A stretch of DNA of 64,000 nt from Acidimicrobiales bacterium (GTDB lineage Bacteria > Actinomycetota > Acidimicrobiia > Acidimicrobiales > SHLQ01), in contig JAHDCX010000001.1 of the NCBI GenBank assembly GCA_020629635.1, positions 263,043-327,042 on the forward strand. Direction: 5' to 3'. This document shows positions 53,367 to 56,196 of this stretch, one piece after another. Position numbers and translations under genes: made by a program. Below the pieces are notes generated by a model. That model was given only the letters and a program-made list of their open reading frames with translations, was not told where the DNA came from and made no database searches. Position 1 is the first letter of the stretch. Each line of letters starts with the position of its first letter.

Positions 53367-53903
53367 ATGCGAGTTTCCCCGGTCGATCCGTCCGACGTGG
53401 AGCCCCGAGTGGCTGCCGTGCTCGATGCGCAGGCCGAACGCTGGGGAGCGCCCCTAGCCAATCACCTCGTCTACGCCCGCCGGCCCTCGATTTTCCGGGG
53501 AGCGCGGGCGATGTGGGGCGGTCTCGACGCGTCGGGATTGATCGACGGAGCGTTGCATGCGTTGGTGAATCGGCGCGTCGCCTCGCAGATCGGGTGTGTG
53601 TTTTGAGCCGACATCAACGCTGCCGTGGGCAGCGATGCGGGGTGGACAGATGCCCAGCTCGATGCGGTGGCCGAGACCGAGCTCGATCGGTCGATGTTTG
53701 ACACCCGGACGCTCCTGGCTCTCGATCTCGCCGATGCGATGACCGTCGGCGACGTCGACGATCGGCTGTTCGGGGCACTCGTCAACGAATTCGGCGAGGA
53801 CGCCGTGGTCGAGCTCGTTGCGGTGATCGCATGGGAGAACGCGTCGGCTCGGTTCAACCGGGCGATCCGGGTTCCGAGTCAGAAGCTGTGGGACCGCCCG
53901 TGA
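53367..53903 (+). CDS. AhpD/CMD-family protein, probable selenoprotein (TGA at 53604-53606 read as Sec)
   Basis: One frame of 178 residues interrupted by a single TGA at codon 80. Before it: LDAQAERWGAPLANHLVYA and RRVASQIGCVF; after it: ADINAAVGSDAGWTDAQL and LVNEFGEDAVVELVAVIAWENASARFN, together a complete carboxymuconolactone decarboxylase-like fold. The TGA falls on the second Cys of the CxxC redox motif, giving C-V-F-U-A-D-I-N. A SECIS-like hairpin follows. AhpD-type proteins reduce peroxides or disulfides through CxxC. The stop overlaps mshC in GTGA, so readthrough would also feed mshC translation. Alternative: a nonsense mutation, argued against by the hairpin and coupling. Confidence 0.8.
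53618..53634 (+). promoter_or_regulatory. Bacterial SECIS-like hairpin
   Basis: 53618-53624 pairs perfectly with 53628-53634 (7 bp) around the triloop GTG. The loop begins with G and lies 19 bases after the TGA, within the range I recall for bacterial SECIS elements that recruit SelB. It falls in codons for AAVGS just after the active site. Confidence 0.7.
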
Positions 53904-55039
53904 GGCCGCGGGTGTATGACACCGCTCGGGCTGGGCTGGTTGAGGTCCCGGCGTCGTCGCCAGTTCGGATCTACACGTGTGGCATCACGCCCTATGACGC
54001 AACCCACATGGGACATGCAGCCACCTACGTCACCTACGACGTGCTGCAGCGTCATCTGCAGCACCGGGGTTTCGAGGTCCGGCTGGTCCGCAACATCACC
54101 GACATCGACGACGACCTCTTTGCGCGTGCCGCCCGCGACGGCGTGCATCATCTGGATCTCGCGTTCGGGCAGAAGCGGCGCTTCGACCTCGATCTCGAAG
54201 CGCTTGGCGTCGAGGAGCCCTGGAGCGAGCCGAGGGCGACGTCGGCGATCCCCGACATTCGGGGTCTGGTACACACGCTCCTCGAACTCGACGTGGCGTA
54301 CGAGTCGGGGGGTTCGGTGTATCTGGACCGTGGGGCCGTGCCGACCTTCGGTTCGCTGTCGGGGTACAGCCGGGTCGATATGCGAGCGATCGGGGAGCGG
54401 CGTGGCGAGGATCCCCGAGACCCAGCCAAGCGGCACCCGCTCGACACCGTCTTGTGGAAACCATCGGCGGTGGGTGAGCCGGAGTGGGAGTCGCCGTGGG
54501 GGAGTGGGCGGCCGGGATGGCACATCGAGTGCGTGGCGCTGTCGCTCCGAGAGCTCGGCGGAATCGATATCCATGGGGGCGGATGCGATCTCGTCTACCC
54601 GCACCATGAGTTCTGTGCCGGGATCGCCGACGTCTTGCCGGAGACCTCGAGAGCCGAAATCTGGATGCACCAGGCGTGCGTGCACTTGGCCGGTGAGCCG
54701 ATGGCGAAGTCGACCGGCAACCTGGTCTTCGTCCACGAACTCCTTTCGTCGTATCCGGGTCCGGTGCTGCGTCTGGCCGTGCTCTCTCAGCACTATCGGA
54801 CGCCGGAGTGGACGTGGGAAGCGACCCTGCTCGATGACGCAGCTCGCCGGTGGCGGTTGTGGTCCTCCCCCCGCGCAGGAACGTCGCTCCCGACCGAGGT
54901 TGTGGCTCGGGCGCTCGACGACGACCTCGACGTACTGACTGCGCTCGACGAGATCGACCGGGCGGCCTCAGGTGGCCACGACGTCACCGACGCAGCCGCG
55001 CTCCTGGGCGTCCAACTCGAGGTCCCCGCCCGAACCTGA
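53900..55039 (+). CDS. mshC: Cysteine:GlcN-Ins ligase (mycothiol synthesis), MshC-like
   Basis: 379 residues, shorter than cysteinyl-tRNA synthetase (about 460) and near MshC (about 410). Seen: CGITPYDATHMGHAATY with a zinc Cys and the HxGH signature, NITDIDDDLFARA, DTVLWKPSAVGEP, GRPGWHIECVALS, HHEFCAGIADVL, and the KMSKS-like MAKSTGN. These strings are those I associate with MshC rather than CysS. It lacks a tRNA anticodon-binding domain. It would ligate Cys to GlcN-inositol using ATP. GTG start in a four-base overlap with the selenoprotein gene. Confidence 0.85.
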   Translation: MRPRVYDTARAGLVEVPASSPVRIYTCGITPYDATHMGHAATYVTYDVLQRHLQHRGFEVRLVRNITDIDDDLFARAARDGVHHLDLAFGQKRRFDLDLEALGVEEPWSEPRATSAIPDIRGLVHTLLELDVAYESGGSVYLDRGAVPTFGSLSGYSRVDMRAIGERRGEDPRDPAKRHPLDTVLWKPSAVGEPEWESPWGSGRPGWHIECVALSLRELGGIDIHGGGCDLVYPHHEFCAGIADVLPETSRAEIWMHQACVHLAGEPMAKSTGNLVFVHELLSSYPGPVLRLAVLSQHYRTPEWTWEATLLDDAARRWRLWSSPRAGTSLPTEVVARALDDDLDVLTALDEIDRAASGGHDVTDAAALLGVQLEVPART

Positions 55040-55053
55040 AGTTGGGTGTGGGG

Positions 55054-56196
55054 CTAGAAGACCGTGTTGATCTGCTCGCAGCCCGCGGTCGAGTCGCTCG
55101 CATTTACAGGGACGTCCCCCGGAGACAATACGAGCAGTTCGGGCCAGCATCGGTCGGTGCCAGCTCCCCCGTTGAGCCGATCCCGGTCGTAGCCGCCGGT
55201 CATGAGGTCGTCGTCGTCGCCGCCGTCCACAACGTCATTGCCCTGGAAGCCATCGAGCACGTCGCGCCCGGGACCACCGAGAAGCGTGTCGTCCCCGCCT
55301 TCGCCACCGAGGTAGTCGTTGCCTCCGCCGCCGGTGATCGTGTCGTTGCCGCCCGGGAAGAAGGCGCCGATGCCCTGTTCGTCGAACTGCGAACCGTCGT
55401 CGCCGAGGATGAAGTCTGCGCCGCCTTCGCCGCGCAGTGTGTCATTGCCGAGCCCGCCGACGATGTCGTCATTTCCGTCGCCAGCGAAGACCGAGTCGTT
55501 GCCGTTGCCGCCGTCGATGGCGTCGTCGCCGTCGTTTCCGACGAGTTGGTCGTTGCCGTCGCCGCCGAAGATGTTGTCGTTGCCGTCACCACCGCCGAGG
55601 TTGTCGTCGTCGCCTTCACCAGAGATCAGGTCGTCATCGGCCTCGCCGTAGATTTCGTCATTGCCGCTTCCGCCGCTCAGCCGATCGCCTGCCTTGCCGC
55701 CGCGAATGACGTCGTCGCCATTGCCGCCGAGGATTGTGTCGGCGCCGCCGACGCCCCAGATGACGTCCCGATGCCCGCCGCCGCGAATGGTGTCGTTGCC
55801 TGCGTCGCCCCGGATGGTGTCGTTGCCGCGGTCTCCCCAGATGCGGTCCTTGCCGTTGCCGCCTTCGACGTAGTCGTGGCCGTCGCCGGCGTAGACCCGG
55901 TCATGGCCGCGTTCGGCGAAGAGTCGGTCATTGCCTGGACCGCCGAAGATCTGGTCGCGCCCATCTCCGGCACAAATGACGTCATGGCCGTCGAGACCGT
56001 TGATGATGTTGTTGCCCGCTCCGGCCACGATGACGTCGGGTCCGTCGGTTCCGTTGATCACGGCGGCGTTGGACACGATCGTGGCGACACGGCCGTCGCA
56101 GGTGGCTTGTGCGGCCGCCGGTGCGGCGGAGAGGACGAGTGCAACCATCGCCACAGACAGAACGGCAGCGACGCGTCGCCGGCAGATCGCGATCAT
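55054..56196 (-). CDS. Secreted protein made of RTX calcium-binding repeats
   Basis: 380 residues. A signal peptide (RRRVAAVLSVAMVALVLSAAPAAAQA) is followed by about 30 nonapeptides of the form GGxGNDxIx, from residue 45 to about 345, and a short end with two Cys (RCWPELLV, AGCEQINTVF). There is no catalytic domain. It should fold into a calcium-loaded beta-roll outside the cell. AAAGGGAA precedes the ATG. Similar repeats end the protease at 18867-21068. Function may be structural or matrix-related; unknown. Confidence 0.85.
   Translation of the reverse strand: MIAICRRRVAAVLSVAMVALVLSAAPAAAQATCDGRVATIVSNAAVINGTDGPDVIVAGAGNNIINGLDGHDVICAGDGRDQIFGGPGNDRLFAERGHDRVYAGDGHDYVEGGNGKDRIWGDRGNDTIRGDAGNDTIRGGGHRDVIWGVGGADTILGGNGDDVIRGGKAGDRLSGGSGNDEIYGEADDDLISGEGDDDNLGGGDGNDNIFGGDGNDQLVGNDGDDAIDGGNGNDSVFAGDGNDDIVGGLGNDTLRGEGGADFILGDDGSQFDEQGIGAFFPGGNDTITGGGGNDYLGGEGGDDTLLGGPGRDVLDGFQGNDVVDGGDDDDLMTGGYDRDRLNGGAGTDRCWPELLVLSPGDVPVNASDSTAGCEQINTVF

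What the first reader, a model, noticed from the sequence alone, without database searches (positions are those of the whole stretch)
53367..55039. Probable CxxU selenoprotein of the AhpD/CMD family coupled to mycothiol ligase
A single in-frame TGA replaces the second Cys of CxxC in an otherwise intact CMD-like protein; a 7-bp hairpin with a G-first loop lies 19 bases downstream; the distal half ends in a GTGA overlap with mshC. A redox selenoprotein made together with the enzyme for the cell's main thiol would be a mycothiol-linked peroxidase or disulfide reductase, which I do not recall being described.
Basis: partly seen in the sequence, partly recalled or inferred. Interest (0 to 1): 0.9.

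Follow-up and report, generated by a model that had tools for sequence, protein, structure and literature searches.

The report
YciW/AhpD-like CxxU selenoprotein beside mshC-like gene
A gene that looks broken by a stop codon is a working gene whose UGA is read as selenocysteine; it belongs to an already recognised kind of small redox enzyme, and its place next to a mycothiol-ligase-like gene was found only in this genome, so a mycothiol-linked system is not shown.

Summary
The frame 53367-53903 is open except for one TGA at codon 80, giving C77-V-F-U80, and its stop overlaps the next gene's GTG. The genome has all four selenocysteine components: selA, selB, selD (itself with one TGA) and tRNA-Sec. 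All 11 close homologues carry TGA at the same codon; wider relatives alternate Sec and Cys. The hairpin after the TGA (53618-53634, loop GTG) is conserved beyond what the protein needs and shows compensatory changes. This is a real selenoprotein, not a pseudogene.

It is not a new kind. NCBIfam already has NF053654, "YciW-related (seleno)protein" (E 9e-71; 237 bits, below the 310-bit cut-off), and AhpD-like CxxU selenoproteins of COG2128 were reported in 2005.

The mycothiol coupling is weak. No homologue examined lies beside mshC. In 24 of 29 relatives of the same order the gene in that position is npdG-like (NADPH-dependent F420 reductase), which was not found in this genome. The ligase is MshC-type but diverged, and a better MshC lies elsewhere in the genome beside cysS. 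Most likely function: a thiol/selenol oxidoreductase or peroxidase of the AhpD fold; substrate and reductant unknown.

The parts
53367..53903 (+). YciW/AhpD-like (CMD superfamily) selenoprotein, 178 aa with Sec at 80; stop TGA 53901-53903
   Evidence: NF053654 E 9e-71; CMD Pfam 19.8 bits, below its cut-off of 23; AhpD-like fold
53595..53606 (+). CxxU redox motif: Cys77-Val-Phe-Sec80
   Evidence: sequence; C77 and position 80 invariant in the 8-row alignment
53604..53606 (+). TGA read as selenocysteine
   Evidence: TGA at the same codon in all 12 members of the starred clade, window included
53618..53634 (+). bacterial SECIS-like hairpin, 7-bp stem, loop GTG at 53625-53627
   Evidence: 92.9% of cells paired, 3 pairs with changes on both sides, 0 of 500 shuffles reach the covariation score
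53900..55039 (+). MshC-type cysteine ligase (diverged), overlapping the selenoprotein stop by GTGA
   Evidence: TIGR03447 337 bits, cut-off 485; nearest solved structures are the MshC entries 8hfm and 3c8z; order-wide orthologues at 45-56% identity
52558..53331 (-). divergent FabI-like enoyl reductase; fixed neighbour of this mshC type in the order
   Evidence: found upstream of mshC in 22 of 29 order relatives; name inferred from sequence, not family-tested

Best explanation
The gene encodes a selenoprotein of the AhpD/CMD fold, of the YciW (COG2128-like) kind. SelB with Sec-tRNA decodes UGA at codon 80 with the help of the hairpin at 53618-53634 (shown by conservation, inferred for translation). 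Cys77 and Sec80 form a CxxU pair at the active site. The most likely chemistry (inferred) is that Sec80 attacks a peroxide, disulfide or other electrophile, forms a Se-S bond with Cys77, and is reset by a cellular thiol or a thioredoxin-like protein. The gene was probably acquired horizontally and sits where order relatives keep npdG. Its overlap with mshC probably means translational coupling, but no functional tie to mycothiol is shown.
For: selA 394.5 bits, selB 280.8, selD 362.7 with one TGA, tRNA-Sec 65.1, all over their cut-offs; ARAGORN tRNA-Sec, anticodon tca. TGA at the same codon in 11 close homologues. Cys at that position in more distant ones (L023, L025, L117). Constraint on codons after the TGA and covariation of the hairpin. 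Third-position-biased divergence on both sides of the TGA, so both halves are under protein-level selection. NF053654 full-length match. AlphaFold model pLDDT 81 matching PA0269, Atu0492, Bmp8 and D. radiodurans AhpD.
Against: No direct protein evidence of Sec. The score is below the NF053654 cut-off, so orthology to the named equivalog is not established. The residue four after U80 is Asn, not the His of classical AhpD, so AhpD peroxidase activity cannot be assumed. The phylum labels of some homologue bins may be wrong (MAGs).
Confidence: 0.88

Rival explanations
1. The selenoprotein and the MshC-type ligase form a dedicated two-gene mycothiol-linked redox unit, in which mycothiol (or a variant made by this second ligase) reduces the CxxU enzyme.
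For: GTGA overlap on the same strand. The genome probably makes mycothiol: mshD over cut-off, MshA-like at 392 bits. Two MshC-type genes are present, so one could be specialised.
Against: None of the homologue loci examined has mshC nearby. The order's mshC usually has npdG at this place, so the pairing looks recent. Homologues also occur in bins named for phyla not known to make mycothiol.
Confidence: 0.1
2. Decaying pseudogene with a nonsense mutation.
For: A single stop codon in an otherwise open frame would fit an early decay.
Against: The same TGA in 11 homologues, codon-level constraint downstream, no frameshifts or other stops, and a complete Sec machinery.
Confidence: 0.02
3. Sequencing or assembly error for a Cys codon (TGC or TGT).
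For: The genome is a draft in 37 contigs.
Against: Independent assemblies carry the same TGA and the hairpin.
Confidence: 0.01
4. The enzyme is not a peroxidase but a reductive dehalogenase-like or other thiol-redox enzyme, as the homologue Bmp8 debrominates a brominated pyrrole.
For: Bmp8 is a hit by profile and by fold, and the AhpD His is replaced by Asn here.
Against: Bmp8 is only about 20% identical over the fold match and no halogenation genes were looked for.
Confidence: 0.12

Closest known systems
NCBIfam NF053654 GroundWater_YciW, 'YciW-related (seleno)protein'
   Same: Full-length match (2-177 of 178), CxxU, TGA in the members found here; L053 in the same starred clade reaches the cut-off (310.1 bits)
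   Different: The window protein scores 237 bits, below the 310-bit cut-off: a sister rather than a strict member
AhpD-like CxxU selenoprotein, COG2128 (YciW), Sargasso Sea (PMC1088965; PMC9312934)
   Same: Same kind by name and motif: YciW-type, CxxU, small hairpin with a G in the loop
   Different: The published sequences were not compared here; host lineage and gene neighbourhood differ or are unknown
AhpD of Mycobacterium tuberculosis (1knc)
   Same: Same fold superfamily; the second residue of the redox pair is the Sec position
   Different: Weak structural match (TM 0.47); Asn in place of the His four residues after the second Cys
MshC (3c8z, 8hfm)
   Same: CGITPYDATHxGHAATY signature and length without the CysS C-terminal domain
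   Different: KMSKS-type motif reads PMAKS; TIGR03447 337 bits against a cut-off of 485; a second, better MshC exists in the genome

Membership tests
Bacterial selenoprotein | selA, selB, selD and tRNA-Sec in the genome | tested here: met
   all over cut-off
Bacterial selenoprotein | In-frame TGA conserved in homologues and replaced by Cys in others | tested here: met
   12 of 12 Sec in the close clade; Cys in L023, L025, L117
Bacterial selenoprotein | Hairpin just after the UGA, small loop with a G | tested here: met
Bacterial selenoprotein | Selenocysteine present in the protein | not testable with these tools
   needs mass spectrometry or 75Se labelling
NF053654 YciW-related (seleno)protein | Score over the curated cut-off of 310 bits | tested here: not met
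   237.3 bits; clade mate L053 310.1
NF053654 YciW-related (seleno)protein | Full-length alignment and one clade with members over the cut-off | tested here: met
   profile 3-179 of 179; starred clade of 12 with L104, L105, L106
CMD / AhpD superfamily | AhpD-like all-helical fold with a CxxC-type pair | tested here: met
   Pfam CMD 19.8 bits is just below its cut-off of 23
AhpD peroxidase | His four residues after the second redox residue (H137 of M. tuberculosis AhpD, from general knowledge) | tested here: not met
   Asn84 in the window and the close clade
AhpD peroxidase | Peroxidase activity | not testable with these tools
   needs an enzyme assay
MshC (TIGR03447), downstream gene | Score over the curated cut-off of 485 bits | tested here: not met
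   336.9 bits; the C7 copy scores 450-452, also below
MshC, downstream gene | MshC-type active-site signature and nearest solved relative | tested here: met

The most novel reading that the evidence does not exclude
A selenoenzyme of the YciW/AhpD kind has been paired with a second, specialised MshC-type ligase to form a mycothiol-linked (or variant-thiol-linked) selenol redox unit that took the place of an F420:NADPH reductase gene.
Probability: 0.1. Interest if true: 0.6.

Novelty: new member of a known kind. Interest (0 to 1): 0.27.

Why it matters
It adds a well-supported selenoprotein, with a clearly covarying SECIS-like hairpin, to an actinobacterial lineage in which it is not otherwise common. 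Standard gene callers would split it at the TGA. It also gives a natural test case of gene replacement: a Sec redox gene in the position where relatives hold npdG, next to a diverged second MshC-type ligase.

Tried and rejected
Pseudogene and assembly-error readings were tested against homologues and rejected. A conserved mshC neighbourhood was looked for around homologues and not found. An Rfam scan of the window gave only tRNA-Val, so no known RNA family covers the hairpin. No other copy of this protein was found in the genome. Paper searches for selenoproteins with mycothiol found no paper on a mycothiol-linked CxxU enzyme of this type from titles and abstracts, and none for Acidimicrobi- with selenocysteine.

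Full report
Observation. The frame from ATG 53367 to stop 53901-53903 is open apart from one TGA at 53604-53606, codon 80. Read as selenocysteine it gives 178 residues with the motif GCVFU-ADIN. The next ORF starts at GTG 53900 and shares GTGA with the stop. The hairpin is CGCTGCC-GTG-GGCAGCG at 53618-53634; the loop starts 18 nt after the TGA.

Machinery. The genome holding the window (G000, 4.45 Mb, 37 contigs, 96.5% complete) has tRNA-Sec (65.1 bits, over cut-off; ARAGORN tca), selA (394.5 bits) and selB directly after it (280.8 bits), and selD (362.7 bits with one in-frame TGA). The selD TGA lies in GAG-U-GCK, so selD is itself a likely selenoprotein.

Homologues. The genome-contig scan gave three close relatives (58-64% identity; L051, L052, L053) and the class search one more (L022, 53%). 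All four have TGA at the same codon. The NF053654 search of the phylum added seven to eight more, again all with TGA in the close clade. On a tree of 40 rows the window lies in a starred clade of 12, all Sec; the wider family alternates Sec and Cys, needing at least 3 changes on starred branches. The collection titles of the relatives name Planctomycetota, Thermomicrobiales and Actinobacteria bins. That suggests horizontal transfer, but bin names can be wrong.

Hairpin. Among five genomes, amino-acid-conserved codons within 12 codons after the TGA are invariant in 5 of 7 cases against 7 of 59 elsewhere (p = 0.0015). On 18 sequences the 7-bp stem is formed in 92.9% of cells, three pairs show changes on both sides, and no shuffle of 500 reaches the covariation score of 0.232; sliding the partner strand by 1-3 columns drops pairing to 31-53%. 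Related sequences can inflate the shuffle control, but the slid control keeps relatedness. The fold of the window strand alone is -18 kcal/mol with this helix.

Protein. NCBIfam's best match is NF053654, 'YciW-related (seleno)protein', E 9e-71, 237 bits, cut-off 310. Its clade mate L053 scores 310.1. Pfam CMD is 19.8 bits, just below cut-off. The AlphaFold model (pLDDT 81, pTM 0.74) matches the AhpD-like structures 2ijc, 2o4d, 7xw1, 2gmy, Bmp8 (6ohi) and D. radiodurans AhpD (6k40), in line with the profile search. C77, position 80, D82, E157 and N158 are invariant in the eight-row alignment. The classical AhpD His four residues after the second Cys is Asn84 here. From general knowledge of AhpD, the second residue of the pair is the one that attacks the peroxide, so Sec sits at the expected attacking position. 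The exact substrate is not shown.

Neighbourhood. The downstream gene is MshC-type: TIGR03447 337 bits against 283 for cysS, nearest solved structures the MshC entries 8hfm and 3c8z, and the CGITPYDATH signature. It has order-wide orthologues at 45-56% identity. It is below the family cut-off, and its KMSKS-type motif reads PMAKS. The genome has a second MshC-type gene on C7 (452 bits) directly before cysS. MshD is over cut-off and MshA-like is 392 bits; mshB was not searched. So mycothiol synthesis is likely, but the window gene is not clearly its main ligase.

In 29 order relatives the gene just upstream of this mshC is npdG-like in 24 (one example, from L077, scores 157 bits on TIGR01915, over its cut-off of 149.8). 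No CMD gene was found there in any of them. npdG was not found in the window's genome. None of the homologue loci examined has mshC nearby, although several of these loci are short. The pairing is therefore known from this genome only. It looks like a redox gene placed into, or replacing npdG in, a stable position between the FabI-like gene and mshC.

Known work. The Sargasso Sea study lists AhpD-like proteins of COG2128 (27 sequences) and CMD-domain proteins (4) with CxxU (PMC1088965). The 2022 review names COG2128 YciW (PMC9312934), and the 2026 review keeps these families (PMC13188914). The finding is a new member of a known kind.

Shown: open frame with conserved TGA, machinery, hairpin conservation and covariation, family and fold. 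Inferred: actual Sec insertion, enzyme chemistry, translational coupling, horizontal origin. Not shown: any role in mycothiol metabolism.

Noticed in passing
L020 (G000:C13:133404-134318, strand -): selD carries one in-frame TGA in the context GAG-U-GCK, so SelD is itself a likely selenoprotein.
   Followed up: partly
L055 (G000:C7:21245-23593): A second, better-scoring MshC-type gene lies directly before cysS, so the genome holds two MshC-type ligases.
   Followed up: partly
L075-L103, upstream of mshC: An npdG-like gene (F420:NADPH reductase) sits between the FabI-like gene and mshC in 24 of 29 order relatives; npdG was not found in the window's genome.
   Followed up: partly
L115, L116, L119, L120, L122, L123: A sister group with CPFU and nearly the same hairpin core GCCGTGGGC, about 38% identical to the window protein.
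   Followed up: partly
L114: A relative with Ser in place of the first Cys (SAYU), and a stem that pairs through compensatory changes.
   Followed up: no
class search hits marked '1 TGA': Many more distant CMD-family hits in the class also contain one in-frame TGA, e.g. L031 with CAYU; other CMD selenoproteins seem common there.
   Followed up: no
window 55054-56196, strand -: ORF of 380 aa with many GGxGxD-type repeats, like calcium-binding RTX-type proteins.
   Followed up: no
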